Assembly: GCA_017472145.1 (NCBI GenBank)
Contig: JAFUQX010000018.1
Coordinates: 1 to 56,574, forward strand
Reading direction: 5' to 3'
Origin: Ruminococcus sp.
Lineage (GTDB): Bacteria > Bacillota > Clostridia > Oscillospirales > Ruminococcaceae
Length of the DNA stretch: 56,574 bases
In this document: positions 309 to 24,025 of the stretch, in pieces
How positions within the stretch are numbered: position 1 is the stretch's first letter
How the letters are laid out: each line of letters starts with the position of its first letter
Position numbers and translations under genes: made by a program
Notes under the pieces: model-generated
What the model saw: the letters and a program-made list of their open reading frames with translations, nothing else
Databases searched by the model: none
What the model was told of the DNA's origin: nothing

Positions 309-337
309 TTGACAGCAGGAGAGAGATGTTGTATAAT
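309..337 (+). promoter_or_regulatory. Consensus sigma-A promoter for the VWA gene
   Basis: TTGACA at 309-314 and TATAAT at 332-337 are separated by exactly 17 bp, a perfect match to the housekeeping consensus. It lies about 65 bp ahead of the VWA start and may drive the whole cluster. Confidence 0.85.
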
Positions 338-401
338 AAAAAGGAAAAAAGCGGAGGGGTGTCGATTCGTGCACCGCCGCCGCAGCGAGAGGATGGATAC
401 T

Positions 402-2558
402 ATGTTCAAGCGAATTCTTGCAGCCGTGATCATCATTCTGCTGTCTCTGCCCCTGCTGGGGATGCAGGCCAGGGCCGCTGAAAAAACCGTCACACGCCAG
501 ATCAATCTGGTCTATGATGACTCCACCAGCATGCGGGATGGCGGCCAGACCACCTGGTGTCAGGCCAAATACGCTACCGAGGTCTTTGCGGCCCTCATGG
601 AGGAAAACGACACCATGCATGTCTACGCCATGAGTGACTATTCATCGCCCCGTCTGGCGCTCTCCGGAGCGGATGGGGCGGCCCATAATGCATCTCAGGT
701 TCATGAAATGCTCACCTCAATGAATGGAACGCCCTTCGCCGCCGTGGAAAAGGCCTATGCCGATCTGGAGAATTCCTCCGCAGACGAAAAGTGGCTGGTC
801 ATCTTTACGGACGGCGCTTTTGCAGATGAAGGCAACAACGCAATGATGCCTGCCAGCCTGAACAATTTCTTTTCCGGGAAATCAGATGATGTACAAGTTA
901 TGTACCTGGCCATCGGGGACAAGGCCTTCGCCATCAACGAGGACGAGGGGAAGGGCATCTATTCCGAAAAGGCCACGGACGGGAAGGACGTGCTCCGGAA
1001 GCTCACCGGAATGAGCAACCGCATCTACAACCGCAACAAGCTCGAGGTGGACGCAAAGAGCCGTACATTTTCCTTTGACGTACCGATGTCGGAGTTGATC
1101 GTTTTCGTTCAGGGAAAAGGCGTGACCCTTCAGGGTCTGAGCGGCCCGGACGGAGCGGCCCTTTCAGCCGACAGTGCGGCCCAGGTGCGCTACAGTGAGC
1201 AGGCCGATGTGAATTTTTCCCCCGGCGCATTTCCCTTTGACGATTCCCTCCAGGGGCAGATTGCCTATTTTACGGGCGATTTCGCCGCCGGAGACTATAC
1301 AGTGGACTGTGAAAATGCACAGACCATCGAGGTCTATTACAAGCCCAATGTGGACATTCTGGCCATGCTCACCGACAGCGAGGGGAATGTCTATTCGCCA
1401 AGTGACCCCATCCGTCCGGGGGCGTATACCCTGTCCTTCGGCTTTGTAAAGCCGGGTACGGATGAGATCCTGGAGGCCTCCGACCTGCTGGGAGATGTCA
1501 ATTTCACGGCTTCTCTGACTGTGGACGGAACGGACTCCGGCCGTACATATGAAAACGGGGACACCATCGAGATCACCGAGGGAAGCCAGGCGGTCCTCCA
1601 GGCGCAGGCCGAGTATCTGGACGGGAACTCTGTCCGCACGGAGCTGTCCTATCGTGTCCTCCAGGGGCATACACTTTCCATGAAGGTCGGAAAGAGTCCG
1701 GACTACACGCTTACCATGGACGGCTTTGAGAAGGACGATCAGCCCATCACGGTGACTTTGCAGCCCCAGGAGGGAGCGATCACCCCGGAGATCTGGGAGC
1801 AGATGGAGACCATTCAGATCAGCCCGGCAGATGAGGAGGTGCGCTTGGGTACATTCAAGGTGGAAAAGACCGATGTTCCGGGCGTTTTTCACATCTTCCC
1901 CACCGTCTGGAATGACCGTGTGCTGTTATGCTCCGTGGGAAATATCCCCCTGGAGATCTCTTTTTCCCAGACCATCGATGGAGAGCTTTGGCAGGGAGAA
2001 GGCACTGGCTCTGTGGAGATCACGGACGGCGTTCCCGGTGCGGTACGCAGTCTCCCCTGGCTCATTGCACTGGCCGTGCTGGTGCTGATCCTCCTGTTTG
2101 TCCTCTGGTGGATGACACGTAAGGTGCTGCCGAAGCGGATTGTGCTCGTGCCGGATACCACGGAGTTCTTTATTGGCCTGGGGAAGGCCGAGGGCGTGCA
2201 GGCTTCTATCAAGTATAACCGGAGCGCACGCACCCTGAAAATGTCCACGCCGCCCTATTCCGTAGACCCGGAGTGCGAGGGCAGTATGACCATCACCCTG
2301 CGGCCCTGCGACCGCCGCTATGTGAAATCCTCCCGGAGACGGGTCGAGGTGGTCTCCGTCCATGCGACGCATAATGTCTACCAGATCTCGATCTCCCATG
2401 TGGATTTTGAGTGCAATGAAAACGGCAAGTGGGTGCTGTCCGGGGCTGAGGAGGGGCAGAGCTTCGTCCTGTCCATGCGGAATCCCAACCTGGAGCTGAA
2501 AACCGGCTCAGCCGCCAATCCGGCCTCCCGGTGCTCCTGCGATGTGAAACATCTGTGA
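402..2558 (+). CDS. Membrane-anchored VWA-domain protein
   Basis: This 718-residue protein starts with a hydrophobic signal segment, so most of it should be outside the cytoplasm. A von Willebrand A domain follows, with MIDAS residues D39-x-S41-x-S43 and the later GTPF and FTDGAF motifs, implying divalent-cation-dependent ligand binding. Beta-rich extracellular repeats run to a transmembrane helix near residues 549-572, and a cytoplasmic tail of about 145 residues is rich in basic residues. The ATG at 402 is chosen because GAGAGG lies nine bases upstream; the ATG at 393 would abut that site. It is the first gene of a same-strand cluster with a tubulin-like protein. VWA proteins are known partners of bacterial FtsZ-like families, so it is probably the surface-facing or scaffold part. 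The ligand is unknown. Confidence 0.85.
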   Translation: MFKRILAAVIIILLSLPLLGMQARAAEKTVTRQINLVYDDSTSMRDGGQTTWCQAKYATEVFAALMEENDTMHVYAMSDYSSPRLALSGADGAAHNASQVHEMLTSMNGTPFAAVEKAYADLENSSADEKWLVIFTDGAFADEGNNAMMPASLNNFFSGKSDDVQVMYLAIGDKAFAINEDEGKGIYSEKATDGKDVLRKLTGMSNRIYNRNKLEVDAKSRTFSFDVPMSELIVFVQGKGVTLQGLSGPDGAALSADSAAQVRYSEQADVNFSPGAFPFDDSLQGQIAYFTGDFAAGDYTVDCENAQTIEVYYKPNVDILAMLTDSEGNVYSPSDPIRPGAYTLSFGFVKPGTDEILEASDLLGDVNFTASLTVDGTDSGRTYENGDTIEITEGSQAVLQAQAEYLDGNSVRTELSYRVLQGHTLSMKVGKSPDYTLTMDGFEKDDQPITVTLQPQEGAITPEIWEQMETIQISPADEEVRLGTFKVEKTDVPGVFHIFPTVWNDRVLLCSVGNIPLEISFSQTIDGELWQGEGTGSVEITDGVPGAVRSLPWLIALAVLVLILLFVLWWMTRKVLPKRIVLVPDTTEFFIGLGKAEGVQASIKYNRSARTLKMSTPPYSVDPECEGSMTITLRPCDRRYVKSSRRRVEVVSVHATHNVYQISISHVDFECNENGKWVLSGAEEGQSFVLSMRNPNLELKTGSAANPASRCSCDVKHL

Positions 2559-2936
2559 TCAGAGAATTTCTGGTTCAAATCGGACTTTGCCTTTATTTCT
2601 CCCAGATAAACAAAACTCGTACAGTCCGCAAGATTTGTCGCTGCGCTCCGCTCTTGCTATGTACGCTCATTCCGCATGACGGCTTTTCTTGTCTGGATGC
2701 GCAGACTTCCTATTGGAACAAACAGAAATGGATAAGCTTTTTATATTATGCGGAATGAGCCTGATCGTTCGGCCTGAAGCAGACGTAAGCCTTAACTTGC
2801 TTCGTCATGGCTGCTCCGCAGCCATCTGGGACTCCTCGTCCCAGACCCTACGCCAGCATTTTCTGAAGAAATTGCTGGACCAAAAAGACTTCATAATTCC
2901 AATGCAAATATACAATTTTATGATGGAGGTTTTACA
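2559..2936. other. Structured 378-bp intergenic region
   Basis: No convincing gene is present. A perfect 13-bp inverted repeat, GCTCATTCCGCAT at 2665-2677 and ATGCGGAATGAGC at 2748-2760, is separated by 70 bp. Two compact hairpins follow: GGCTGC-TCC-GCAGCC (2809-2823) and TCTGGGAC-TCCTC-GTCCCAGA (2825-2845). A possible -10 (TATATT) overlaps the second arm. This may be a small mobile or palindromic element inserted inside the cluster, or a leader for the tubulin-like gene. Confidence 0.5.
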
Positions 2937-5900
2937 ATGGTAATGAAAAAAGAAAACGTAAAGTACAATTCCACCCCGGCTACGATCTTTATCGGCTGTG
3001 GCGGCATCGGCTCGGATATCGTGGCCAGAGTCGCTGAATTGTGCCACGGCGATGAAGCTGAACGCATCCGCTTCGTGGTGCTCGATACCAACGCCAACGA
3101 CCTGAAAAAGGTGGTCAAAGGCTCGGCTGAGATCACCTCGATCCAGACTTCCTCGACACAAAATATTCTTGACTATCTGAAAAATGATGAGGATGCACGC
3201 CGCACCTGGTTCCCCAACAACACCACCCTCTATCCCAAAACTGTGTCCGAGGGCGCTGGCCAGGTCCGGGCCATCTCCCGACTGGCGATGAACACCACCA
3301 TTAAGATCGGCCACATCCAGCGGCTCTACCGGGAGATCGACAACCTCTTCCTCAAGGACGGCGGCGAGTTCAAGCAGGCCCTCCGGGTGGTCATCGTCTC
3401 CTCGGCGGCCGGCGGCACAGGCTCGGGTATCGCCATGATGGTGGGTATGATGGTGCGCCAGTACCTCCATCAGCATTACCGGGAAAAGTCAGCTCTCATC
3501 CGTGGCTTCCTGCTCCTGCCGGGCGTGATGGACAGCGGCACCATCCGCACTCAGTCCGAGCGTCAGAGCCTGCGCAGAAACGGCTATGCCACCATCAAGG
3601 AGATCAACGCTTTCATGATGAATGCCTCCGGCTTCTGCGGCGTGCGCCGGGAGCTGAGCCGCTTCCGGGATATCCATGTGGATGTGCCCACCGCAGACAA
3701 CGACACCGAACGCCTGAGCGCTCTGCCCTTTGACTTCTGCTTCCTCCTGGATCGGGTGGACAATCAGCAGGAGAGCATGCAGACCCTGGAACAGTACAAG
3801 GCCTTTGCCGCACAGAGCCTCTATGAGCAGAATATCGGCGCTATGCAGGCCTGCTCCTTCTCTATGGAGGACAATATCATCAAGGAGTTTGCCAATGCGG
3901 AGAATCTGGGCCGCAACCGCTTCGGCGGCATCGGCTCGTCCGTCCTGCGCTACCCCTATGAGGAGATCGCAGACTATGTGGCCTATACCCGGGCCATGGA
4001 ACGGATCGGCGGCGGCAGTGAAGCCTCCGACTGGTCTAAGTATGACAAAAAATATAAAGAAGAATTTGAACAGTTCAAGAAGAAGAGAGGACTTACCGCT
4101 GATAAAGAGCCGAACCGAGGGGCGATCTATGTGGCCGCTCTGAACAACGATGAGCACCGCTTTGGTCAGGACATCAAGCGGGAGCTGGCTCCCATGGGCA
4201 ATGTAAGCGTCTCGGCCCCGAAGCAGGCGGACTCTCTCCTTAACAATATTTTCACGGAGATCCTCTCCTCCTTCACCAGCCTTCCGGCCATCAGCAGCAA
4301 GCAGTCTGCTGTGGAAAGCTACAAGAAGGTCATCGATTATAAGAATGACGGCGGCGCAAGCGGTACAGGCTCGGTAAAGCTCTCCAACCTGCGGGCCTAT
4401 GAGACACAGGTCAAGAAGGAGGCCTACAGCTTTGCCAAGGCCAAGGCCCAGGCCATGTTCTTTGATTCTCCCAATATCAAGGGAACGGCCGTCAAGCCCT
4501 TCCACATCGAGTCTGTGCTCACCGCTCCCGGCGGAAGCATCCACCCCAATGCCGTGCGCTATATGCTCTATCTGGTACAGCAGAAGATGGAGGAGCAGCA
4601 TCAGGCGGCCAAGGTCAGTGTGGACGAGATGAACGAGAAGCTCAAGAACTATGCGCCCAACGCCTCCAATCCCGCCATGTTTGATGCGAAGATGCGTGCC
4701 TCCAAGATCGAGGAGTGCACCATCGATGAGCTGGTGGAGCTGGAAAGAGAAGTGGCCACCCTGAAAGACCGTCTCGAGGGCTATGACCCGAACAAGCTCT
4801 ATGAGCAGTATAACGTGGTATTCCCGGCCTATGCAAAGGCTGTGCTCAGCTACCGGGAAGCCGTTCTCAAGTCGGCCGCTTTTGAGGTGGGTCTGGACTA
4901 TCTCCACCGCCTGTGCCAGGAATTCGAGCGTTTCTATGGCACCTTCGGCGTGAAGGTCACCGAGCTGAAGAAGAAAAAGGAAAGCATTGTGGACGGCCTG
5001 CGCTTCCGCAGAGGACAGTTTGTGTCCAATGTGTGCGGCACAGAGAGACATCTTCAGGCGATCCTCAAGGACTGCCCGGAAAGCTCCGACGGCCTGCTCC
5101 TGCCCTCTGACCTCAACGCCGATATTCTCGAGGCCATCAAGAGAAATACACGCCTGCGCAAGGAATATGAGGGCGACCCCAGAGCCGCAAACCAGACCCT
5201 GGATATCTTTGATGAGGTGCTGATCGACTATTTCCGTGGTGCGGTTCGTGAGGATTGTGCCGAGATCATCGATCTGAATATTGTCGATGCCATTCGCCTG
5301 GAATGCCGTCTGGAGGCCCGCTTCAAGGCCGAGGACAGCGTGGAGGAGCTGACCGACCCCAGTGATGCAGCGCCCACGCTCACCCAGCAGGAGGAGTATC
5401 TCTCCGGCAAGATCCGCTATGGCCACCGCCTGGCCGCTCCGGGCATTACCGGACCTCGCTTCGATGAGCCGAGAGATGTGTGCGCCTGCGCCTACAGCGT
5501 GACCCTGAAAAGCCTCAAGGGCGTGGATGTAAAGGCCCTCTTTGAGGTGGAGGGCATCCATCCGGAGGAGACCGACACCGTTTCCAAGTATGAGATCCGC
5601 TTCTTCAATGCCCTCTATAATCTGACCCCGGACAGACTGGCCCGCTTTATGAACCCCGAGTCCTGCAATAGGAAGGACTTCCCCGGCGAGACCAGCCCCG
5701 GTATCTACTTCTCCGCTTATCATAATTACATCCAGGATATCGGCCCGGATTCCACCAAGAGCGCAGCCATTTCCCTCCACATCGACAAGAGATGGGACTC
5801 CGTGGCTGAGCTGCCGGAGCTGGATATGAAGGTGCAGTATGCAGAGATGGTACGGATCCATATGGCCCTGATCTATGGCCTGGTTTATGATATGATCAAG

Positions 5901-6554
5901 ACACGCCCCTCCTCCCGCCACGACGCCAAGAAGCGTATCTTCGAGCTGGAGGACAGCGAGGGTGAGCTGATCCCGTTTGTTGTATCCAACGGCACAGAGT
6001 GCGATGAGTTCTACGAGGTGCTGGATGCCCTCTACCGGGATCGTGCAGCGGTGAAGCTCATCCATAAGACCACCAAGAGCCGCAGCCGCTATGACATCGA
6101 GAAGAACCACCGCTACAACGAGACGGCCTTCTACCACGATCTGAACATGTTCCGCATCGGCGACGGCCACGAAGACCCCACCAGCCTCTTTGAGATCCCG
6201 CTGGCCTACTACAACTCCCTGCCCAGAGTCAAGATGGATGACAACGAGCTGTCCATTATGATCGACAGCGTCATCCGCATCCTGGAAGAGGAGGTCGCCA
6301 AGTATGAGCAGCCCTTCGATCAGATGCCCTATCTGGTGGAGATCCTGGAGGAGCAGTTCAGGCTGCTGGTGGAGAACTTCTGCAACGAGGAATATAACGA
6401 AAAGTATGATATCCGCAAGAATTCTGACATCCAGGATAACGTGGTGATCGGCATGGTGCTGCGCAAGGTCTCCAACAAGATCAAGCAGTCCCAGGTATCC
6501 GACTGCGATGACCGGGCCCGTGCATTGCGTCAGCTGGTTCGGGGTCAGAGATAA
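2937..6554 (+). CDS. Tubulin/FtsZ-like GTPase family protein
   Basis: This 1205-residue protein has an N-terminal tubulin-like nucleotide-binding domain. The early glycine loop is G20-C-G-G-I-G-S-D27, followed by a LDTNAND strand at 49-54. The tubulin signature appears as AGGTGSG at 158-164, preceded by a hydrophobic strand (VVIVSSA). The family matches the bacterial 'tubulin-like' group (Tubulin_2), much longer than FtsZ (about 350-400 aa). The remaining roughly 900 residues are mostly helical and charged, with no recognised enzyme motif. It lacks a signal peptide or clear TM helix and should be cytoplasmic. GGAGG at 2925-2929 supports the start. Its neighbours are a VWA protein and two membrane proteins, which suggests a polymer-forming or scaffold role at the membrane. 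Polymerisation and GTP hydrolysis are inferred, not shown. Confidence 0.85.
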   Translation: MVMKKENVKYNSTPATIFIGCGGIGSDIVARVAELCHGDEAERIRFVVLDTNANDLKKVVKGSAEITSIQTSSTQNILDYLKNDEDARRTWFPNNTTLYPKTVSEGAGQVRAISRLAMNTTIKIGHIQRLYREIDNLFLKDGGEFKQALRVVIVSSAAGGTGSGIAMMVGMMVRQYLHQHYREKSALIRGFLLLPGVMDSGTIRTQSERQSLRRNGYATIKEINAFMMNASGFCGVRRELSRFRDIHVDVPTADNDTERLSALPFDFCFLLDRVDNQQESMQTLEQYKAFAAQSLYEQNIGAMQACSFSMEDNIIKEFANAENLGRNRFGGIGSSVLRYPYEEIADYVAYTRAMERIGGGSEASDWSKYDKKYKEEFEQFKKKRGLTADKEPNRGAIYVAALNNDEHRFGQDIKRELAPMGNVSVSAPKQADSLLNNIFTEILSSFTSLPAISSKQSAVESYKKVIDYKNDGGASGTGSVKLSNLRAYETQVKKEAYSFAKAKAQAMFFDSPNIKGTAVKPFHIESVLTAPGGSIHPNAVRYMLYLVQQKMEEQHQAAKVSVDEMNEKLKNYAPNASNPAMFDAKMRASKIEECTIDELVELEREVATLKDRLEGYDPNKLYEQYNVVFPAYAKAVLSYREAVLKSAAFEVGLDYLHRLCQEFERFYGTFGVKVTELKKKKESIVDGLRFRRGQFVSNVCGTERHLQAILKDCPESSDGLLLPSDLNADILEAIKRNTRLRKEYEGDPRAANQTLDIFDEVLIDYFRGAVREDCAEIIDLNIVDAIRLECRLEARFKAEDSVEELTDPSDAAPTLTQQEEYLSGKIRYGHRLAAPGITGPRFDEPRDVCACAYSVTLKSLKGVDVKALFEVEGIHPEETDTVSKYEIRFFNALYNLTPDRLARFMNPESCNRKDFPGETSPGIYFSAYHNYIQDIGPDSTKSAAISLHIDKRWDSVAELPELDMKVQYAEMVRIHMALIYGLVYDMIKTRPSSRHDAKKRIFELEDSEGELIPFVVSNGTECDEFYEVLDALYRDRAAVKLIHKTTKSRSRYDIEKNHRYNETAFYHDLNMFRIGDGHEDPTSLFEIPLAYYNSLPRVKMDDNELSIMIDSVIRILEEEVAKYEQPFDQMPYLVEILEEQFRLLVENFCNEEYNEKYDIRKNSDIQDNVVIGMVLRKVSNKIKQSQVSDCDDRARALRQLVRGQR

Positions 6555-6590
6555 TGACGGAAATGTTTCTTTCAGAAGGGAGGTGAGCCT

Positions 6591-8834
6591 GTGTTTACCG
6601 TTGTCATCTGCGAAAAGAAGCTCCTCAAGAAGCTGGAAAAATATCATCTGCTCCTGGCCCCGCTCCTGAAATCCAGAGAGGTCGTGTTCTGTGAATGGTA
6701 CAGAAAGGCCGACAGCCTCAGCGCCATGGTCCCGGAGCTGGAATCGGTCGTGGGAAAGCACACCGAATGGCGTGCCATCCTCGTTTCTTCCGAGGGAAAG
6801 GAGAAGATCAATCCCTTTGATTATACCGGCTATCAGGAGAAGCGCACCGATGCCATCCAGCGGTATGGCTACGACCCCGGAAATGCAGACAGTCTCCGGG
6901 AGCAGCGGTTCAAAAGCTACAGAAAGGCTGCGTCCAATCCTCTGGTGCGGCTGGGCTGTGCCCTGTGCGGCTGTCCCGTAGGGGAACAGCTTCTGGATGC
7001 GCCCTTTGAAACAGAGAAGCTCCTGACCGGGGAGATCGGAATAGAGGAGGTCATGCTCCACCGCACCCTGAGAGATCTGCCCAGCCGTTCGAGTGCGGTG
7101 CATACGCTCCAGACCCTTCACCGGGACAAGCTGCTCTCCTTCGTTCAGGAGGCAGACGAGCAGAAGGTGCTCTTTGCCATCGAGGAGGGGGACGCCCATA
7201 TGCTGGCCCAGCTCCTGGGTTATCTGGGAAGCGAGCGGCTCATCCGGCTGCTCACCGACAGCGATCCCTGCTATGCCGATCCGGAATATACCGAGAAGAT
7301 CATCGACAATACAGCGAAAATGCAGGCCCTCTCCAGCTTCTCCCAACGGTTTGTGCTGAAGAATCCCAGGCCCTCCGAGGTGCTGTGCATCGCCCAGCGG
7401 TGCACCGATACCACACGCCATCAGGTCAATGTGCGGTGGCAGGACAGCGATGAGCTGCAATATTCCCGGTTCTCTGAGTTCAACCTCCTGCCGGATATGC
7501 TCCGGTATATGATCTTTGACCTCCACGAGTCCGACTGCTGCTCCTATGAGTACGATGTCCTGCGCTTCCTGACCTTCCTGCTCATCACCGCCGCCAATGA
7601 CATTCCCCCCGGCCTGCTGGAAAAGAACCGGGTCTATGTGGCGGACTGTATCAATAACACAGAACAGTTCACAAAGCTGTTTGCATCATATGACAAAAAG
7701 CTCCGGAATACCGAAAAGGCCATCGTTCAGATGCAGGAGCTGCTCCACAGACGCAGTGAGGAGGAGGTGGACACCAGCTCCCTCATGAAGCAGGCTCAGA
7801 CGGAGGTGACCGTTCCGGTGACGTTTGATCTTCCCCCGGAGGAGCTGAAGGAGGCCCGACTCCTTGTGAAGAAGATCGGCCTGGCCGGAGACTGTCCCCA
7901 GGATGAAAAGGAGGTCATCTACCCGCAGTTCGAGCGGATCTATGACCGCTTCAAGCGGATGCTTCAGCAGCCCAGACGTGCGGTGAAGCGTGCGGTGGAT
8001 ATCATGCGCACCCACAACCGCATTGAGGATATCAGCGCTGTCTATCTGGATCCCCTCCAGACAGAGGTCCTGGAGGAAAAGGCACAGGAGATCGAGAAGG
8101 AGATCCTCTTTTCCAATACCATCGATCTGTATCAGGAGGCCTGGTACAAGGAGCGCCTTCAGGAGGAGGAGGGCAAGGTCAGAGGCTGTGTGGATACACG
8201 CCTGACCCGGAAGGTCACCGTGGCCGGCGGTGCTGTGGTTCTGGGGGCCTTCTTCGCCGGCTTTGTGCCCATGCTTCTCTCTGCGGAGAATACCGTCTCC
8301 ACCCTGGGGAATTCCCTGCTCTTTGCCCTGGGCGGATGCCTGGCTCTGGCTGCGGCCGGAATGGGCCTGCTGCTGATCCTGCGCCAGGATGTGAAAAAGG
8401 TCATCAAGGGCTTCAACGGCGTTTCAAGGGCCATTGCCGATACCATTACCCATTCCATGAATACCTACTCCATCTTCCTGACCAAGGTCTGCTCCTTTAT
8501 GCGGATCCGTTCGGTGCTCAATTCCTTCCGGGAATTTGAAAAGCAGGAGATCGTGCAGCACCGGATCTATGACAAGCATCTGAGCGATATCCGGCGTATC
8601 CGTGCGGAAATTCATGAGATCTACCGGGGCTGTGACCTGTCCCTCTATGAGCCTTCCGGCGAGGAGGAATTCTACGAATATGACTATACGATCCTTATGG
8701 ATTATGACTATTTCCCGGCCTACAAGGCCAGCGTGTGCACCATCCCCTTTATGCAGGAGGGATGTACGGTGCAGATCCCCGTGGACTTTGTGGATCAGAT
8801 CACGCTGAGGAGAGAGGAGCTTTATGATGTATGA
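6591..8834 (+). CDS. Two-TM cluster protein of unknown function
   Basis: I do not recognise the family. The 747-residue protein starts at GTG 6591, preceded by a strong AAGGGAGG at 6576-6583. The first 80 residues alternate strand and helix (FTVVICEKK, EVVFCEW, WRAILVSS), loosely like a receiver or Rossmann-type fold. The middle is helical and charged. Two hydrophobic helices lie close together at about 543-566 and 575-598, forming a hairpin in the membrane, and the last 150 residues are again soluble. It begins 36 bases after the tubulin-like gene and overlaps the next gene by 11 bases, so the three are surely co-transcribed. It plausibly links the cytoplasmic tubulin-like protein to the membrane. 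Confidence 0.75.
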   Translation: MFTVVICEKKLLKKLEKYHLLLAPLLKSREVVFCEWYRKADSLSAMVPELESVVGKHTEWRAILVSSEGKEKINPFDYTGYQEKRTDAIQRYGYDPGNADSLREQRFKSYRKAASNPLVRLGCALCGCPVGEQLLDAPFETEKLLTGEIGIEEVMLHRTLRDLPSRSSAVHTLQTLHRDKLLSFVQEADEQKVLFAIEEGDAHMLAQLLGYLGSERLIRLLTDSDPCYADPEYTEKIIDNTAKMQALSSFSQRFVLKNPRPSEVLCIAQRCTDTTRHQVNVRWQDSDELQYSRFSEFNLLPDMLRYMIFDLHESDCCSYEYDVLRFLTFLLITAANDIPPGLLEKNRVYVADCINNTEQFTKLFASYDKKLRNTEKAIVQMQELLHRRSEEEVDTSSLMKQAQTEVTVPVTFDLPPEELKEARLLVKKIGLAGDCPQDEKEVIYPQFERIYDRFKRMLQQPRRAVKRAVDIMRTHNRIEDISAVYLDPLQTEVLEEKAQEIEKEILFSNTIDLYQEAWYKERLQEEEGKVRGCVDTRLTRKVTVAGGAVVLGAFFAGFVPMLLSAENTVSTLGNSLLFALGGCLALAAAGMGLLLILRQDVKKVIKGFNGVSRAIADTITHSMNTYSIFLTKVCSFMRIRSVLNSFREFEKQEIVQHRIYDKHLSDIRRIRAEIHEIYRGCDLSLYEPSGEEEFYEYDYTILMDYDYFPAYKASVCTIPFMQEGCTVQIPVDFVDQITLRREELYDV

Positions 8835-11800
8835 TGCTGTAAAAATGCTCCTGGCTTCTCTGCCCTTTCTGGGCCTGACCCTGTTGGGAGAGAAAATCAA
8901 CCTGAAAAAAGTAAACCGCAGCCGGCAGATCCTCATGCCTGTGCTTTCGGTGCTGGCCTGTCTCTATCTGCTGGTAAAGACGGATGATATCAATCAGGGG
9001 ATCCTGGACCTGATCCGAGAGATCCCGGAGTGGCTGATGGATCTGTCCCCGGAGCTTTCGGCCTATGCGGAGCAGCTGCTGCAAAGTGTGGACTGGAGCT
9101 ACTGGATGACCTATATCTCCTGTCCGGTGATGCTCATCGGCTATTACCTCATCAAGGCGGTGCTGCTGCCCATTCTCTCCGCTGTTTTCTCCGGGAGCGG
9201 CTTTCTCGTCACCAGCCTCAAGGGGCTGTTCTACCAGGAGGAGACCGATCTGAGCTTCTGGTCCGTCAAGGAGAAGTATGCTCAGCTGCGCCGGTATTAC
9301 AAGGTGTTCTTCTATGCAGCGGCCATTATCGCATCCCTGATGCTGACCCTGTGCCGGATGCTGATGGACAATGAGATCCTGAGCGCCCCCTTTTATCCCG
9401 TGTTCGGAGTGCTCATCGTAGGAGAGCTGTACTTTGCCCTGGACGGCCTGAGACGAAAGGAATATTTCACCACCGTGCTGGGAGAGGATGAGGAGGCCGC
9501 CCATGTGGTCAACTACTCCCTCATGCGCAAGTTCCTGCGCTCGGCCTTCCGTGCACACCTGATGAAGGAGGATACGGTCATTCAGTACGGGGAGGCCTCC
9601 GGCGTGTCTGTTACTGATGTCATCAAGGAGCTGGAAAAGGATACCGATCCGGACATCTCCCTGTTCGGACAATATCTCAGCCAGGTGCACAGAACCGGCT
9701 TTTCGCTCAACACCGACTATATTCAATCGGTGGAATCCCTCCTGCGGGGACGGAGCGTGCTCTTTAACAATCCCTTTTACCACGACCTTGTGCCCTATAT
9801 CTTCTACCCCATGAACCGTGTGCTCATGAGCCACAAAAAGGTCATGGTGGTGCTGGGACGGCATCGGACCGAGGAGGATGTGACTGCGTGGCTTCAGGAC
9901 GGTGTGGCTTCGGTTACGAGAGTCCCTCAGATGTGGCGCATTGGCGTGCTGGACGATTCCGACCAGGAACTGGATATCGGCATCATGACCCGCTCTGATG
10001 TCCATAACGGCGCTCTCCACCAGAAGAAAAAGGCCTTCTTCTCACAGGTGGAATATGTGATCCTCCTGGAACCGTCCAAGCTCATCTCCACCGCACAGAT
10101 CGGATTGAATTCCATCATCAAATACTGCCGCAGCGAGGAGAAGAATATCGTCTGCTGCTCCTTTGATAAGAACTGTGACGGCCTGGTGGATGCGCTCTCC
10201 CACATTCTCATGACGGATATTCAGGAGGTGTCTGCCACCAACAGGAGCAACGGCACCTATTCCTACATGTGCTGGGACTATGACCAGATGTATTGGCAGC
10301 ACCGGCTTTTCCCGAATATCTCACGATATCGGGGTATTGGCACAGAGCTGTCCCTGGCCGCCCTGAAAAATCAGGTGGAGACTACCGCCTGGTACGGCGG
10401 CGAGACCTATCCGGTTGCCGATCAGCTCTGGATCGACCGGCAGTACTACTATGACCTCATGCGCTATGCAGGACTTCCGGCCCGGCAGGAGGAGGTCTCC
10501 GAACGCTTCCGCTTCAGACCCACCTTCTGGGATGCCAGAAGACGCCCCTATCAGTATATAACCGTGGAGGACGAAGCCTGCAATATGTTTGAGATGGTCC
10601 GGGCCTTCTCCACACGCTCTACCCGTCAGGGCTTTGTGAATGTCATTTCGGGAGACTATCTGCTGAAGGATTATATGGCCGATAATGCGTCCATTTTCAT
10701 GGCCGATCCAAAGGCCATTCCCTGTATCGTTGCGGACTATGCACGCACCGCCCGGAATGTGACCATCCGTCTGCTGCTCATGCTTTCCTCCGGCCCGGTC
10801 AGCGAGGAGGATATTCTCAAGGAATTTGCCATGATGGGCCGTACGGTGCGCAATGTGAGAGAGACCCTCTGGTGTGAGATCCTCAAGTGCTATACACCGT
10901 GTTCCGTGCAGATCGATGCGCTGAGCGTCCTTCAGAAGGAGCTGGAGCTGTGCGACCCGCAGACCGGAGAGCGATGTGTCTTTGATGAGAGCATGCTCTA
11001 TACCGAGCGCAGATATTCGGTAGCCAAGAACCGCTACGAGACGATGTACTGCATCGAGGACAAGAACTTCCTGCGCCTGGTGTGCGGTGAGCTGCGCAGT
11101 GCCTCCTATATCGCAGAGGACGAAAAGGGCGGCCGCCACTTTCTGGGTGCGGAGCTGTACGGACATATTTTCCAGCGGCATCTGCCGGGACAGTTCTTTG
11201 TCTTTGATGGAAAGTATTATGAGATGTGCGCCCTGGCGGATGATGGCCATGTCATTGTCCGGCGTGCAGCGGACCATATCCACGGACGAAAATATTACCG
11301 TCAGCTTCGCCGGTATACCATCGGCAGTCATTTCCTGGCTGAGCGTACCGGCGGCGAAAGACGAATGGACGACATCCATGTCACCCTGGAATATGCCGAT
11401 ATTACGGTGAATACCAGCGCTTATCTGGAGATGGATACCGCCAGCGATTATATGACCGCAAGGCGTGTGGAGATCAGCGGCATTCCGGAGAGAGCCTATC
11501 GCCGCAAGCAGCTGCTCCGCCTGGAGTTCCCGGCTCTGGATGTGTATGAGGCCTATACCCTGGCCTTTCTCATGAACGAGGTCTTTGCTTCGCTCTTTGC
11601 GGAGAACCAGAGCTTCATTGTGGCCACGGCCATTCCGCCGGCTGAGGATGAAAACACCGACTCTGATGGGCCTTGTGCGTATCCTCTGACCTATACGCTC
11701 CAGGATGACTCCGCTGAAGGAAAGGCCTGCATCTGCATTATCGAGGACAGCCAGACCGATCTGGGTCTGCTGGTGGCCGTGGAGCGGAATCTCAGCAGGA

Positions 11801-13038
11801 TCATGGGGATGGTCTATGACTATCTGGACTGGCATCAGTGGAAAACCGAGGACAGCAAAAAGCCCCGGCCCAAGGACGAGCCGGAGGAGATCCCGGAGGA
11901 TGAACCTGCGGAAAAGAAGAAAGGCTTTTTCCAGCGGCTCGGGGAGAAGATCAAGGAAATCATCGAGCGGATCAAGCGCCGCTTCATCAAGGAGGACGAA
12001 CCGGAAAAGGAGCTTCCCGATCCGGAGCAGCCCCGGATGCATGCAGATATGAGCACAGCACCGGAGCAGGGGGAGGATATCCCGGAAACAGAGACGGAGA
12101 CAGAACCGGAGGACGATTCCGCAGAACCAGAAGGCGATGGAATCGAGATCGAAGCCGAGGAAGAGGAGGCCACCAGGGTCCAGGCCAGCACGGATGAGCG
12201 GCCGCCCTATTTCAGGAAGAATTTCCTGCTTCTGGGTGGTGCAAAAATTCCGGCGGTTCTTCATACGGCAGAGCTGCACAGACAGCTGGAGAGAGCCGGC
12301 TATGAGAAAAATCCGCTGACACAGGCCCGGACCGGCCGGTACAGCAGCTATGACTGGGATCAGTATGATCCCCACCGGAGAGGTACACACTTCTGTGATT
12401 TCTGCGGCGTTGAGCTGGTGGGTACGGAATATGAGGTGCTGGCCGACGGCCGTGAGCGCTGTATGAGCTGCGGACGGACAGCGGTGAAGACTGCGGAGGA
12501 GTTTACAGAGATCTTCAAGGAGGTCATGAGAAATATGGAGGCCTTCTTTGGCATCCAGTTCAAGTGCGGAATTCATGTGGAGATGACCACCGCTCAGAAG
12601 ATCCAGCGTAAGATCAATGAGAAGTTTGTGCCCACAGCCGGCTTTGACGCAAGAGCCGTTGGGCTGGCGGTGAAAGACGCCGCCGGATATAAGATCCTCA
12701 TCGAAAACGGTGCGCCGAGAATTTCCTCCATCATGACCATTGCCCATGAGCTGACCCACATCTGGCAGTACCTCAACTGGGATGAAAGTCACATCCGCAG
12801 GAAGTACGGACGCTCCAAGCGGACGGAGGTATATGAAGGAATGGCCATGTGGGTGGAGATCCAGTACGCCTTCCTCATCAATGAGAAGGAGGCCGCTAAG
12901 CGCACAGAGATCTCTACTATGAAACGACAGGATGAATACGGACGGGGCTTTCTGCTCTATCAGGAGCGGTATCCCTTCTCCGAGGGCAATGCCATCAGCA
13001 AGCCCACTCCCTTTATGTATAAGGATAGTCCTTTATAA
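8824..13038 (+). CDS. Five-TM protein with degenerate SF2-helicase-like core and DA1-like zinc peptidase
   Basis: The 1404-residue protein has about five hydrophobic helices within residues 6-207. Residues 300-450 follow the layout of an SF2 helicase first lobe: a Q (301) ahead of LLRGRSVLF, where a Walker A loop should stand but NNPFYHD (315-321) is found. EPSK (416-419) occupies the DEAH place and SFDK (446-449) the SAT place. A segment near 970-1000 (IIEDSQTDLGLL) recalls the DUF1998 end of MrfA/Hrq1-type helicases. After an acidic, proline-rich linker comes a zinc ribbon (C1191-x2-C1194, C1213-x2-C1216). A metallopeptidase follows with H1308-E-L-T-H1312 and E1338-G-M downstream, the order seen in LIM-DA1 peptidases. 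Membrane anchoring and peptidase activity are plausible; ATP hydrolysis is not. Domain names are my inference from motif layout. Confidence 0.7.
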   Translation: MMYDAVKMLLASLPFLGLTLLGEKINLKKVNRSRQILMPVLSVLACLYLLVKTDDINQGILDLIREIPEWLMDLSPELSAYAEQLLQSVDWSYWMTYISCPVMLIGYYLIKAVLLPILSAVFSGSGFLVTSLKGLFYQEETDLSFWSVKEKYAQLRRYYKVFFYAAAIIASLMLTLCRMLMDNEILSAPFYPVFGVLIVGELYFALDGLRRKEYFTTVLGEDEEAAHVVNYSLMRKFLRSAFRAHLMKEDTVIQYGEASGVSVTDVIKELEKDTDPDISLFGQYLSQVHRTGFSLNTDYIQSVESLLRGRSVLFNNPFYHDLVPYIFYPMNRVLMSHKKVMVVLGRHRTEEDVTAWLQDGVASVTRVPQMWRIGVLDDSDQELDIGIMTRSDVHNGALHQKKKAFFSQVEYVILLEPSKLISTAQIGLNSIIKYCRSEEKNIVCCSFDKNCDGLVDALSHILMTDIQEVSATNRSNGTYSYMCWDYDQMYWQHRLFPNISRYRGIGTELSLAALKNQVETTAWYGGETYPVADQLWIDRQYYYDLMRYAGLPARQEEVSERFRFRPTFWDARRRPYQYITVEDEACNMFEMVRAFSTRSTRQGFVNVISGDYLLKDYMADNASIFMADPKAIPCIVADYARTARNVTIRLLLMLSSGPVSEEDILKEFAMMGRTVRNVRETLWCEILKCYTPCSVQIDALSVLQKELELCDPQTGERCVFDESMLYTERRYSVAKNRYETMYCIEDKNFLRLVCGELRSASYIAEDEKGGRHFLGAELYGHIFQRHLPGQFFVFDGKYYEMCALADDGHVIVRRAADHIHGRKYYRQLRRYTIGSHFLAERTGGERRMDDIHVTLEYADITVNTSAYLEMDTASDYMTARRVEISGIPERAYRRKQLLRLEFPALDVYEAYTLAFLMNEVFASLFAENQSFIVATAIPPAEDENTDSDGPCAYPLTYTLQDDSAEGKACICIIEDSQTDLGLLVAVERNLSRIMGMVYDYLDWHQWKTEDSKKPRPKDEPEEIPEDEPAEKKKGFFQRLGEKIKEIIERIKRRFIKEDEPEKELPDPEQPRMHADMSTAPEQGEDIPETETETEPEDDSAEPEGDGIEIEAEEEEATRVQASTDERPPYFRKNFLLLGGAKIPAVLHTAELHRQLERAGYEKNPLTQARTGRYSSYDWDQYDPHRRGTHFCDFCGVELVGTEYEVLADGRERCMSCGRTAVKTAEEFTEIFKEVMRNMEAFFGIQFKCGIHVEMTTAQKIQRKINEKFVPTAGFDARAVGLAVKDAAGYKILIENGAPRISSIMTIAHELTHIWQYLNWDESHIRRKYGRSKRTEVYEGMAMWVEIQYAFLINEKEAAKRTEISTMKRQDEYGRGFLLYQERYPFSEGNAISKPTPFMYKDSPL

Positions 13039-13043
13039 GAAAG

Positions 13044-13089
13044 AAGAGCTGCTGCAGCATTTCATCATTGCTTGCAGCAGCTCTTTTCT
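13044..13089. terminator. Terminator after the VWA/tubulin-like cluster
   Basis: AAGAGCTGCTGCA (13044-13056) pairs with TGCAGCAGCTCTT (13073-13085), followed by TTCTT. It lies immediately after the stop of the last cluster gene. Confidence 0.8.
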
Positions 13090-13108
13090 TGTCCCGATGC
13101 TGGAAAAT

Positions 13109-13145
13109 AAAGAGCCTGCGGTTTGATCAGCCGCAGGCTCTTTTT
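13109..13145. terminator. Bidirectional terminator between convergent genes
   Basis: AAAGAGCCTGCGG (13109-13121) pairs perfectly with CCGCAGGCTCTTT (13131-13143), with a T-run after it and A-run before it. It serves the minus-strand esterase gene and backs up the preceding plus-strand terminator. Confidence 0.85.
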
Positions 13146-13161
13146 GTGTATAATATTCACT

Positions 13162-14454
13162 TTACATAAAAATCAACTGCTTCATCCGGACCAGATCGAA
13201 GATGGTCACACATCCGTCTCCGGTGAGGTCACCGCTGAGCGGGGATGTAAGCCCGCCGGCTCCCGCCAGATGTTTCTGGGTCATCACCATATCCGCAAGC
13301 GTGAATGCGCCGTCTGCGTTGACATCGCCCTCTGTATCCGTGCCTGTGTCGGTGCAGTATACATTCTCATACATGGTCTCTGCCCAGATGCGCCGCATTT
13401 CCGCATAGCCCTCGCTGCTGGGATGAACACCGTCTCCGCTGAGCATCTCCGGATGCTCCCGGAAATAGGCGTCAAAATCAGGCCCGTGTACAACCTGAGG
13501 GTATTCCGTATAGATCTGCTGCACCTTTGCATTGTATGCATCCAGATAGGCATTTACCCCGGCTTCCGCAGCATAGGGAATGGTCGGCAGTACAGGGATT
13601 TTCCCGGCGGCCAGGACGGCCTCGATCATATAGACCGTGTTTTCGTAATATTTTTCAGCGCCTGTCTGATTGCCCCACGCATCATTCGTTCCATAGGCGA
13701 TACTGACGTACCTTCCGGGATAGGTGGAGAGCCACCGGTCAATGTGACTGCGGCCGTCTGTACTGGTAATGCCGCCGATCCCACCGTTTTCCTGCACAGG
13801 GAAGTACCGGGAATCCAATGTATGGATGTGCGTGGCGAAGCCTGTGCCGTAGCAATTGTTCATACCGCCGGCCGTGATGGAATCACCCAGGAAAATCCAG
13901 CTGTCGGTGACGCCGTCGGATACATCATGGATGTCCAGGTTGATGCTGATGTTTCCGCTGTCCTTGCCGTCTGCGCCTGTGATGTGTATGCGGATCCAGC
14001 TGCTGCCCTCCATGTCTACAATATGCTGACGGGAGCTGAGGGTATTGCCCTCCACCGTCTCCACGATCTCCCAGCCATCCTCCGGATACGTGCCGCCGGG
14101 TGCGTCATTGATCTCGATGGTGTAGTCTGAAGGCTCCATGTTCCGTGAAACATACATTCCCACCGAATCGTAGGAGCTGGTGTTATACCACACCGCATTG
14201 ACCGTCTTCCGATTCTCCTCAGGCACGGCGGAGAGATCATAGGCAAGATAATCCGGGGCTGTGCCGTTCCAGAAGGAGAAATAGTGCTCGTCATTGGCAG
14301 CTGTGGCCTGACCCGTGCCGGAATAGGCCGGACAGCCGCGGCTGATGACCGGGTTGGAAACCATCGCTGCACTGGCCGGAAGGGCGGCCATACTCCAGGT
14401 CGTACCCATTGCAGCCACTGTCAGAACGGCTGCTCCTTTAAAAAATCGTTTCAT
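13162..14454 (-). CDS. Secreted SGNH/GDSL esterase with C-terminal dockerin
   Basis: This 430-residue protein has a signal peptide of about 30 residues ending in ASAA, so it is exported. A beta-rich N-terminal domain precedes an SGNH hydrolase domain with nucleophile S192 in FLGDSIT, N257 in YGTND, and D341-x-x-H344 in DGVHP. This supports deacetylation of polysaccharide side chains, as in CE2/CE3-like esterases. Residues from about 370 form a dockerin: two calcium-binding repeats beginning GDVNADG and GDLTGDG. This would dock it to a cohesin-bearing scaffoldin. The exact substrate is not visible. It is monocistronic, with its own promoter and terminator. Confidence 0.9.
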   Translation of the reverse strand: MKRFFKGAAVLTVAAMGTTWSMAALPASAAMVSNPVISRGCPAYSGTGQATAANDEHYFSFWNGTAPDYLAYDLSAVPEENRKTVNAVWYNTSSYDSVGMYVSRNMEPSDYTIEINDAPGGTYPEDGWEIVETVEGNTLSSRQHIVDMEGSSWIRIHITGADGKDSGNISINLDIHDVSDGVTDSWIFLGDSITAGGMNNCYGTGFATHIHTLDSRYFPVQENGGIGGITSTDGRSHIDRWLSTYPGRYVSIAYGTNDAWGNQTGAEKYYENTVYMIEAVLAAGKIPVLPTIPYAAEAGVNAYLDAYNAKVQQIYTEYPQVVHGPDFDAYFREHPEMLSGDGVHPSSEGYAEMRRIWAETMYENVYCTDTGTDTEGDVNADGAFTLADMVMTQKHLAGAGGLTSPLSGDLTGDGCVTIFDLVRMKQLIFM

Positions 14455-22546: not shown

Positions 22547-24025
22547 ATGAAAAAACAGGTTTATAATCCTTTTTTACCCCTGAATGTATGCATTCCGGAC
22601 GGCGAACCGCATGTGTTCGGCGACCGTGTCTATCTTTATGGTTCTCATGACAAGGAAGGCGGCGAAACCTTCTGCATGCTGGACTATGTGGTCTATTCCG
22701 CTCCGATAGATGATCTGACGGACTGGCGGTGTGAAGGTACGATCTATTGTGCATCACAGGACCCGGACTATCCCAACAGAAAATATATGTACGCTCCTGA
22801 TGTGGTGCAGGGCAAGGACGGACGGTACTATCTCTACTACTGCATGTCCGGAGCCTTCGGCGTGGGCGGCTATTTCGGGCCGATCAGTGTAGCCGTGTGC
22901 GATACGCCGGCCGGAAAGTATGAATTCCTCGGCCATGTGCGCTATCCGGACGGACGGCCGATGCTGAAATATGTCTGCTTTGACCCGGGCGTGATCAATG
23001 ATAACGGCGTGATCCGTATCTACTATGGCACACAGTATGACTATGAGCAGAAAGAGGGCTGGCAGCAGGACGAAAGCATTATCCAGGAGGAAATGAAGAT
23101 GTTCGGCAAGAGCCGTGAGGAGATCCTGGGGACAGAGGGCAGCGTCATGGGCCCCTGCATGGTTGTAGTGGAGGACGATATGCTGACTGTAAAGGAGGAG
23201 CCCAGACACATCATTCCCTATGATACACGGGGAACAAGCTTTGAGGAGCATCCCTTCTTTGAGGCCAGCTCTATGCGGAAAATGGGGGAGACCTACTATT
23301 TTGTGTATTCCTCCAAGCAGAATCATGAGCTGTGTTATGCCACCAGCAAATATCCCGACCGGGACTTTGTGTTCGGCGGAACGCTTGTTTCCAACGGGGA
23401 TGTAGGTATGAATGGACGAGAGGAAAAGGATCGCCTGAATATGACCGGTACGACTCATGGCAGCATCGAGAATATCGGCGGTCAGTGGTATGTTTTCTAC
23501 CACCGCCTGACCCATAAATCCGACTACAGCCGTCAGGCCTGTGCAGAGAAAATCACAGTGAATCCGGATGGCTCCATCAGACAGGCTGAGATCACCTCCT
23601 GCGGACTGAATGACGGCGCACTTCCTGCAAAGGGCACCTACCCGGCCGGAATCGCCTGTGTGATCACCAACGGGCACATGCCCCACGGATGCAACTCCAT
23701 CTACACCGACCACTTCCCCAATGTGACCCATAGGGGAGAGGATCGCTTTATTGGGGAGATCTCAGATGGTACGCTGATCGGCTATCGCTATTTTGACTTC
23801 CGGCAGGCCGAAAAGCTTTCCGTTCTTCTGCGCAGTACCGGACATGGTGTCCTTACGGCTTCGGACGAAATGGGCGGCCAGGCTGTAAGTGCATTTGAAA
23901 TCACTCCGGCCGGGGAGTGGACAAAGCTGGAGGCTGCTCTGAACATGGAGGACGGCGTGCATCCTCTGTATCTTTTCTACACAGGTTCGGGAGAGCTTGA
24001 GCTGAAGGAAATTGCATTTGATTAA
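22547..24025 (+). CDS. Cytoplasmic GH43-family glycoside hydrolase
   Basis: This 492-residue protein lacks a signal peptide and dockerin, so it acts inside the cell on imported oligosaccharides. It has the GH43 five-blade propeller pattern: likely base D18 in CIPDGEPHVF, the pKa-modulating D85 in YAPDVV and the likely acid E239 in FFEASSMRK. This supports beta-xylosidase or alpha-L-arabinofuranosidase-type activity. A C-terminal beta-rich domain of about 130 residues follows, perhaps a carbohydrate-binding module. The ABC-F gene starts 20 bases later. Exact linkage specificity is not visible. Confidence 0.88.
   Translation: MKKQVYNPFLPLNVCIPDGEPHVFGDRVYLYGSHDKEGGETFCMLDYVVYSAPIDDLTDWRCEGTIYCASQDPDYPNRKYMYAPDVVQGKDGRYYLYYCMSGAFGVGGYFGPISVAVCDTPAGKYEFLGHVRYPDGRPMLKYVCFDPGVINDNGVIRIYYGTQYDYEQKEGWQQDESIIQEEMKMFGKSREEILGTEGSVMGPCMVVVEDDMLTVKEEPRHIIPYDTRGTSFEEHPFFEASSMRKMGETYYFVYSSKQNHELCYATSKYPDRDFVFGGTLVSNGDVGMNGREEKDRLNMTGTTHGSIENIGGQWYVFYHRLTHKSDYSRQACAEKITVNPDGSIRQAEITSCGLNDGALPAKGTYPAGIACVITNGHMPHGCNSIYTDHFPNVTHRGEDRFIGEISDGTLIGYRYFDFRQAEKLSVLLRSTGHGVLTASDEMGGQAVSAFEITPAGEWTKLEAALNMEDGVHPLYLFYTGSGELELKEIAFD

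What the first reader, a model, noticed from the sequence alone, without database searches (positions are those of the whole stretch)
402..13038. Four-gene tubulin-like / VWA / membrane-protein cluster
A secreted, membrane-anchored VWA protein, a 1205-aa tubulin-like protein with an intact AGGTGSG loop, and two large TM proteins lie in one same-strand block. The last three are tightly coupled (36-nt gap, 11-nt overlap). Makarova and Koonin (2010, from memory) predicted a multi-component membrane-remodelling system built on FtsZ-like and VWA proteins. This cluster has those two parts plus two large components I do not recognise from any described version. It may be a cytoskeleton that couples an outside sensor to an inside polymer.
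Basis: partly seen in the sequence, partly recalled or inferred. Interest (0 to 1): 0.85.

Follow-up and report, generated by a model that had tools for sequence, protein, structure and literature searches.

The report
Bacterial tubulin-based membrane sensor operon
Some gut bacteria carry a fixed set of four neighbouring genes that seems to link a sensor outside the cell to a tubulin-like protein and a membrane-bound protease inside it, often near genes for ion channels and immune-type proteins, which suggests a stress or self-defence system that has not been described.

Summary
Window 309-13143 reads as one transcription unit: promoter, four genes, terminator. The set is conserved: starting from the fourth gene, the other three lie directly upstream in 72 of 72, 67 of 68 and 59 of 60 informative loci, and the exception carries them as two separate pairs. 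P2 is an FtsZl1/Tubulin_2 protein with an invariant GTP loop; the genome also has an ordinary ftsZ. P1 is a membrane-anchored VWA protein. P3 is a soluble domain on a membrane hairpin, without recognised relatives. P4 has membrane helices, a body that resembles MrfA-type helicases but lacks both ATP motifs, and a zinc-knuckle HExxH domain; 14 relatives add a transglutaminase-fold domain. CASTOR-like channels, RyR-domain proteins or TIR proteins lie nearby in 40 of 80 loci. Related tubulin/VWA systems with a DO-GTPase and GAP1 are in print (Makarova and Koonin 2010; Kaur et al. 2020); here P3 and P4 stand in their place. Best reading: an envelope-proximal sensor-polymer-protease relay for conflict or stress. 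New variant of a known kind.

The parts
309..337 (+). sigma-70-type promoter-like site, TTGACA-17-TATAAT
   Evidence: 12 of 12 consensus bases
402..2558 (+). P1: VWA protein with N-terminal hydrophobic segment, one late membrane helix (about 2049-2105) and a short tail; VWA about 507-815, DDSTS metal site 516-530
   Evidence: VWA_2 1.2e-6, 29.5 bits vs cut-off 27; hydrophobic segments and DxSxS
2937..6554 (+). P2: FtsZl1/Tubulin_2 protein; Tubulin_2 domain 2985-3995, GTP loop GGTGSG 3411-3428
   Evidence: Tubulin_2 1.7e-51; GTP loop invariant in 49 aligned homologues; profile match to FtsZ E 1.7e-6
6591..8834 (+). P3: large soluble domain with a membrane hairpin (about 8220-8276 and 8325-8381)
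   Evidence: conserved in 72 of 72 informative P4 loci; no convincing family or solved-structure relative
8824..13038 (+). P4: membrane helices at the N-terminus, helicase-like body without ATP motifs, zinc knuckle, HExxH domain; start may be 8827
9706..11436 (+). P4 body (about aa 295-871), similar to MrfA-type helicases; Walker A place 9766-9789 reads NNPFYHDL, DEAH place 10063-10083 reads LLEPSKL
   Evidence: hhalign E 2.5e-4, score 46.8 vs at most 19.9 in 12 shuffles; motif tallies
12394..12471 (+). zinc knuckle of P4, CDFC...CMSC (aa 1191-1216)
   Evidence: four Cys invariant in 64 aligned homologues
12745..12846 (+). HELTHIW (aa 1308) to EGMA (aa 1338): metallopeptidase-type motif pair of P4
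   Evidence: HExxHxW in 15 of 15 homologues found by full-length profile
13109..13143 (+). terminator-like hairpin, 15 pairs

Best explanation
A four-component relay across the membrane. P1 senses something at the cell surface through its metal-dependent VWA domain. Its tail contacts P2, a GTP-binding tubulin relative that assembles under the membrane. P3 and P4 hold the assembly at the membrane. The helicase-like body of P4, having lost both ATP motifs, serves as a scaffold or switch. When assembly brings P4 copies together, the zinc peptidase-type domain of P4 (with a transglutaminase-fold domain in some relatives) acts on a target inside the cell; optional partners (CASTOR-like channel, RyR/TrkA membrane protein, TIR protein) act beside it as effectors or signal handlers. 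The purpose is most likely a conflict or envelope-stress response. Shown here: one operon, conservation of the four-gene unit, domain and motif make-up, neighbour genes of relatives. Inferred by rule: topology. Inferred only: polymerisation, order of signalling, proteolysis, purpose.
For: Unit: P3 72 of 72, P2 67 of 68, P1 59 of 60 informative loci; P4 in 25 and P2 in 31 of 394 genomes, all 25 within the 31; the exception L093 has P1-P2 together elsewhere in its genome. P2 GTP loop invariant in 49, similarity to FtsZ. P1 metal site in 63 of 64 and two hydrophobic segments in 60 of 64. Topology: charge and cysteine counts. P4: helicase-like body without ATP motifs; HExxHxW in 15 of 15 found by profile; transglutaminase-fold fusion in 14. 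Partners: CASTOR-like channel 20 of 80, RyR protein 19 of 80, TIR 16 of 80 loci (identities). TIR background far lower. Related tubulin/VWA systems are read as conflict systems in print.
Against: No function was tested. The window itself shows none of the CASTOR, RyR or TIR families in its 56 kb, and its upstream side is cut off. Half of the 80 loci (40) have none of the three. The sister clade lost HExxH in 6 of 6, so the peptidase cannot be essential to every version. P4's helicase similarity vanishes without the sister clade (0.2% to 7.7%), is absent against DEAD and RecG-type sets, and is carried by the first RecA-like part. P2 similarity to FtsZ is reliable only to about residue 175, so the polymer-forming half is not established. 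No background was measured for CASTOR and RyR families.
Confidence: 0.42

Rival explanations
1. A membrane-remodelling cytoskeleton, as Makarova and Koonin proposed for FtsZl1: P2 filaments shape or organise the membrane, P1 binds wall or neighbours, P3 and P4 are anchors, and the peptidase-type domain trims the machine itself.
For: FtsZl1 with VWA and membrane proteins; P3 and P4 are both membrane proteins; a normal ftsZ is present, so P2 has another job.
Against: Exchangeable TIR, RyR, channel and transglutaminase neighbours fit effectors better than shape. The system is patchy: 25 of 394 genomes of the order.
Confidence: 0.22
2. An ion- or osmotic-stress or cell-wall sensor without any immune role: P1 reads wall tension or a ligand, and the channel and RyR/TrkA partners adjust ion flow.
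For: CASTOR-like channel and RyR/TrkA_N proteins are the commonest neighbours (20 and 19 of 80).
Against: TIR proteins in 16 of 80 loci against a low background; the channel or RyR protein is not found in most loci.
Confidence: 0.18
3. P2 is a GTP-binding switch or scaffold that does not polymerise, so the system is a receptor complex and no cytoskeleton.
For: Makarova and Koonin could not find the T6-H7 elements in FtsZl1; here too the alignment with FtsZ is reliable only to about residue 175.
Against: GTP loop invariant in 49 homologues and further invariant blocks past it, to about residue 340, which fit a complete tubulin-type domain.
Confidence: 0.15

Closest known systems
FtsZl1/vWA systems (Makarova and Koonin 2010, PMC2875224; parts 1 and 2 of 5 of the text read)
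   Same: FtsZl1/Tubulin_2 protein beside a VWA protein, further membrane proteins, ordinary ftsZ elsewhere in the genome
   Different: No kinase, P-loop GTPase or OmpA match among the four proteins. P3 and P4 are not named in the text read; their unnamed families B1-B9 are in supplements that could not be opened, so P3 or P4 may have been drawn there without analysis.
GAP1-N2/DO-GTPase conflict systems with tubulin and vWA (Kaur et al. 2020, PMC7159879; section 29 read in full; passages)
   Same: Tubulin-domain protein with a long C-terminal part and an extracellular vWA protein in Firmicutes; placed at the membrane; regulated assembly suggested. Found here in the same order as type B loci (DO-GTPase2, GAP1-M, GAP1-N2 matches)
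   Different: No DO-GTPase or GAP1 match in P1-P4; P3 and P4 instead
MrfA-type SF2 helicases (MZB family)
   Same: Order and spacing of motif places along the P4 body; profile match E 2.5e-4
   Different: Walker A lysine and DEAH lost; no Pfam match to MZB or helicase domains; body joined to membrane helices and a peptidase-type domain
HExxH zinc metallopeptidases: DUF6782, DUF6055, BSP, DA1-like
   Same: HExxH with a downstream Glu; zinc knuckle before it (as in DA1, recalled)
   Different: Weak matches only: 63, 60, 57 and 13 of 64 members, best E 2.1e-5, 9.6e-6, 6.4e-5 and 0.017; the window's own matches are below the curated cut-offs

Membership tests
FtsZl1 / Tubulin_2 | N-terminal FtsZ-like domain with the GTP loop | tested here: met
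   Tubulin_2 1.7e-51; GGTGSG invariant in 49 homologues; similar to FtsZ E 1.7e-6
FtsZl1 / Tubulin_2 | central coiled coil and helical C-terminal domain | not tested
   no coil or secondary-structure predictor was run; the protein has about 850 aa after the domain
FtsZl1 / Tubulin_2 | VWA gene in the same operon | tested here: met
FtsZl1 / Tubulin_2 | present beside a conventional ftsZ | tested here: met
   G000:C11:17164-18141
GAP1-N2/DO-GTPase tubulin system | DO-GTPase and GAP1 proteins | tested here: not met
   no match at E up to 1 in P1-P4; positive control in type B loci. Other genes of the window were not scanned with Pfam, and the upstream side is cut off
GAP1-N2/DO-GTPase tubulin system | tubulin protein and extracellular vWA protein | tested here: met
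MrfA-type helicase (P4 body) | Walker A and DEAH motifs | tested here: not met
   NNPFYxDL and EPS in their places; no GKT in the sister clade either
MrfA-type helicase (P4 body) | profile similarity over the core | tested here: inconclusive
   E 2.5e-4, 43%, over 501 columns with the sister clade; first RecA-like part 46-63% against pooled helicases; aa 480-700 none; aa 735-815 E 0.026 but an unrelated profile (P2) reaches 0.021 there; core clade alone 0.2%
HExxH metallopeptidase (P4 C-terminal) | HExxH and third-ligand Glu | tested here: met
   HExxHxW and EGMA in 15 of 15 profile-found homologues; lost in 6 of 6 of the sister clade
HExxH metallopeptidase (P4 C-terminal) | proteolytic activity | not testable with these tools
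   needs an assay

The most novel reading that the evidence does not exclude
A tubulin-based innate immune receptor of bacteria: an outside VWA domain triggers GTP-driven tubulin-like assembly at the membrane, which activates a membrane-anchored protease on a dead-helicase scaffold and, in many species, TIR signalling read by RyR-domain and CASTOR-like channel proteins. A cytoskeletal polymer would then be a signalling platform, with bacterial relatives of ryanodine-receptor and plant symbiosis-channel parts as effectors.
Probability: 0.3. Interest if true: 0.88.

Novelty: new variant of a known kind. Interest (0 to 1): 0.64.

Why it matters
FtsZl1 tubulins have been known since 2010, and none of the papers found here reports a tested function for them. 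This four-gene unit has a fixed make-up, recurs in many gut Clostridia, and is present in three strain genomes whose titles carry no MAG label (Pseudoflavonifractor sp. An44, Lachnoclostridium sp. An131, Faecalicatena contorta ET51), so the question can be tested. If the relay reading holds, a tubulin-type protein works as a signalling platform at the membrane, tied to TIR, RyR and channel proteins.

Tried and rejected
P4 as a plain membrane protein: given up after finding the conserved zinc knuckle and HExxH and the helicase-like motif order. P3 as the 'distinct GTPase' of Makarova and Koonin: no GTPase family match. P4 body as a Pfam-recognised helicase: no match in the window's protein, only scattered single-member matches. 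First profile tests against helicases: one search used a wrong option (global mode), shown by the failed FtsZ control, and its numbers are void; one search repeated it correctly and was negative for the core clade; the pattern missed the small MrfA proteins, so its mrfa and control lines repeat stale output; one search is the valid run. DEAD and RecG-type sets gave no signal with P4 in any run, although they are relatives of MrfA. Mobility: no P4 match in plasmids, phages or viral contigs. P2 matched one phage-labelled record (MT836542), an unverified 9.8-kb faecal scaffold with P1 and P2 that is more likely bacterial, and one Azospirillum plasmid over 29% of its length. Solved-structure searches gave nothing for P2 or the P4 body, only weak zinc-ribbon and other hits for P4C, and only weak hits for P3 (best E 0.036); full P4 gave weak hits, best 0.16. 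P3 members have scattered matches to membrane families through the hairpin (best 8.5e-5), not taken as kinship. A T7-loop equivalent in P2 (EDN at 311-313) was looked for, but the FtsZ alignment does not place it. The P2 tree is a quick one; non-Bacillota members nest inside, but MAG binning is not excluded and no transfer is claimed.

Literature: nine text searches listed no paper on this P3/P4 variant. Of the papers named, I saw: PMC2875224 parts 1-2 of 5; PMC7159879 section 29 and passages; PMC8195603, PMC9871819, PMC13232231 and PMC9503650 passages. Papers outside the open library and supplements were not seen.
Full report
OBSERVATION. The window is the whole of contig C59 of a 76-contig genome. 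The four ORFs are present as described. A promoter-like site with 12 of 12 consensus bases lies at 309-337 and a 15-pair hairpin with a T-rich tail at 13109-13143, so the four genes read as one transcription unit of about 12.8 kb. The total numbers of such sites in the stretch are not above chance; these two are the best ones. P1 most likely starts at 402, since the ORF start at 231 lies upstream of the promoter. P4 may start at 8827, giving the 8-nt overlap with P3 found in 40 of 77 loci. The contig begins about 300 bases upstream of the promoter, so genes further up are unknown.

CONSERVATION. In 148 genomes of the family P2 matched in 8. Their neighbourhoods are of two kinds. Type A has P1-P2-P3-P4: the window and G093 have all four; G066 has P2-P3-P4 and then the contig end; G052 has the four over two contigs; G094 has them in a diverged form. 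The other three (G115, G019, G098) are type B, without P3 and P4. In the order, a P4 profile matched 25 of 394 genomes and a P2 profile 31 of 394; all 25 are among the 31. The six genomes with P2 only showed no P3 or P4 beside it. P3 gave 16 strong matches, all in P2+P4 genomes, and 3 weak ones over short stretches of the hairpin region; it misses diverged P3. A scan of genome contigs with the P4 alignment found 187 relatives; the best 80 were kept. Where enough sequence lies upstream, P3 is there in 72 of 72 loci, P2 in 67 of 68, P1 in 59 of 60. The one exception, L093, has P3-P4 on one contig and P1-P2 together on another contig of its genome. These counts start from P4, and 80 of 187 relatives were read. 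A sister clade (six genomes, L119-L124) has the same layout with a longer P1, a P4 of about 1750 aa, and a P3-like protein that the P3 profile does not detect; two hydrophobic segments were called in 5 of these 6 P3-like proteins and one in the sixth.

P2. Tubulin_2 1.7e-51; the general tubulin/FtsZ model is 6.6e-7, below its cut-off. Profile comparison with 20 FtsZ proteins: type A rows alone 46%, E 2.1e-4; with sister and type B rows (61 of 64 used) 90%, E 1.7e-6, score 55.9 against at most 23.0 in 10 shuffles. The T1 and T4 GTP loops align; beyond about residue 175 the alignment is not reliable. The genome has an ordinary ftsZ, and P2 is its only Tubulin_2 match.

P1 AND TOPOLOGY. Of 64 P1 proteins of at least 600 aa, 63 have DxSxS, 61 an N-terminal hydrophobic segment and 60 two hydrophobic segments in all. 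K/R is higher after the late segment (4.33 vs 2.25 in 15 residues, n=36), and the ectodomain has 0.7% Cys against 1.3-2.3% for the other parts. This puts VWA outside and the tail inside. P3 in 70 homologues has K/R-rich flanks (5.0 and 4.3) and a short loop with 0.9, so both ends are inside. Of eight P4 proteins sampled, five have five hydrophobic segments, two six and one four; the charge pattern mostly puts the body inside. In 15 loci the P4 C-terminal domain is a separate ORF, 13 of these with no hydrophobic segment called; some splits may be sequencing errors. All this is rule-based.

P4. Pfam finds nothing in the window's P4 body. I noticed by eye a motif order like that of MrfA-type helicases and then tested it. 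With the sister clade included, the body aligns with 13 MrfA proteins over 501 columns (window P4 aa 295-871): E 2.5e-4, 43%, score 46.8 against at most 19.9 in 12 shuffles and 19.8 reversed; helicases pooled with larger relatives give 49.3. Unrelated profiles score 14-29. DEAD and RecG-type sets score 20-21, no signal. Without the sister clade the scores fall to 0.2% (MrfA) and 7.7% (pooled). In parts, the first RecA-like part carries the match (46-63% against the pool), aa 480-700 gives nothing, and the weak hit at aa 735-815 (E 0.026) is no better than one to an unrelated profile (0.021). So homology is supported for the first RecA-like part and otherwise open. At the ATP motif places type A has variants of NNPFYxDL and EPS, and the sister clade has no GKT there either; the body is probably not an ATPase. 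After an acidic linker come a zinc knuckle and HELTHIW...EGMA. HELTH was one of the scan patterns, so its presence in 79 of 81 sources (the other two are cut by contig ends) is biased. Of the 25 genomes found by the full-length profile, 15 fetched ones keep HExxHxW in 15 of 15, the window and G094 keep it too, six sister-clade ones have lost it while keeping the knuckle, and two were not settled. Fourteen relatives carry a further C-terminal transglutaminase-fold domain (14 of 14 match PF01841); nine other loci have a separate neighbour family of this kind (one member scanned; motif in the eight printed), and no locus has both.

NEIGHBOURS OF RELATIVES. Clustering 530 flanking ORFs gave two large recurrent families. 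A CASTOR/DMI1-like ion channel (PDB CASTOR 3.7e-18; Castor_Poll_mid in 8 of 13 members): 19 of 19 in operon direction, 16 within 1 kb, 20 of 80 loci by profile. A membrane protein with RyR and, in some members, TrkA_N matches (PDB RyR 1.4e-17; RyR in 8 and TrkA_N in 4 of 13 members): 13 of 19 within 1 kb, 19 of 80 loci. TIR proteins, several with leucine-rich repeats, lie in 16 of 80 loci (18 ORFs). At least one of the three is in 40 of 80 loci. TIR background: 233 TIR_2 matches in 335 genomes of the order (column added up), 0.22 expected in 0.69 Mb of flank at 2.2 Mb per genome. The two counts used different profiles and different genomes, so the factor is rough. Of the 25 P4 genomes 20 have a TIR gene somewhere, against 73 of about 310 others; kinship confounds this, and some of the 25 may not have been drawn. 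No background was measured for the other two families. The window shows none of the three. Phage RyR-domain proteins degrade or sequester cADPR-type immune signals (PMC13232231, passages), which gives the TIR/RyR pairing a meaning but proves nothing here.

COMPARISON. Makarova and Koonin described FtsZl1 with VWA, kinases, GTPases and OmpA proteins and proposed membrane remodelling. Kaur et al. described tubulin/VWA systems with DO-GTPase and GAP1 among conflict systems; type B loci here carry those parts (DO-GTPase2 in 4 of 4 loci tested, above cut-off in three of them; GAP1-M and GAP1-N2 just below cut-off in L018). Type A keeps tubulin and VWA and has P3 and P4 in place of that module. Nine text searches listed no paper on this variant. 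It is a new variant of a known kind.

MECHANISM. The relay in Best explanation joins an outside metal-dependent domain, a GTP-binding tubulin relative, two membrane anchors, a peptidase-type domain and exchangeable partners. Each step after the anatomy is inference.

Noticed in passing
window 2559-2936: The 378-nt P1-P2 gap holds a perfect 13-nt inverted repeat (2665-2677 / 2748-2760) and is longer than in the relatives measured; it looks like an insertion. An 18-base piece recurs only with 3 mismatches at 24201.
   Followed up: partly
window about 10159-10200 (P4 about aa 446-459): The stretch DKNCDGLVDALSH of P4 holds several residues invariant in 48 homologues. It sits at the helicase motif III place and its role is unknown.
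   Followed up: no
L119-L124: The sister clade has P4 of about 1750 aa with several hundred residues after the knuckle domain that were not identified.
   Followed up: no
L081:14310-17828, L083:7203-10709, L086:12171-15659, L087:14359-17850, L091:14099-15523: In five related loci a gene of one family starts 20-39 nt after P4; the one scanned matches FtsK/SpoIIIE. Small proteins with a shared start follow in three of them.
   Followed up: partly
L093 and L193 (one genome, G730): The operon is split into two pairs, P3-P4 and P1-P2, on different contigs, which suggests two functional pairs.
   Followed up: yes
L191 (MT836542.1): An unverified faecal scaffold filed as Bacteriophage sp. carries P1 and P2 and is probably bacterial.
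   Followed up: partly
window 13162-14454, 22547-24025, 33893-35740, 46700-49462: By eye: secreted proteins with dockerin-like ends and glycoside-hydrolase-like proteins near the operon, as in fibre-degrading Oscillospiraceae (recalled). Not scanned with families.
   Followed up: no
L025, L053, L061, L063, L070: A transporter family recurs in five loci; the one scanned matches CitMHS. In three of the loci it directly follows a member of the LRR/TIR family.
   Followed up: no
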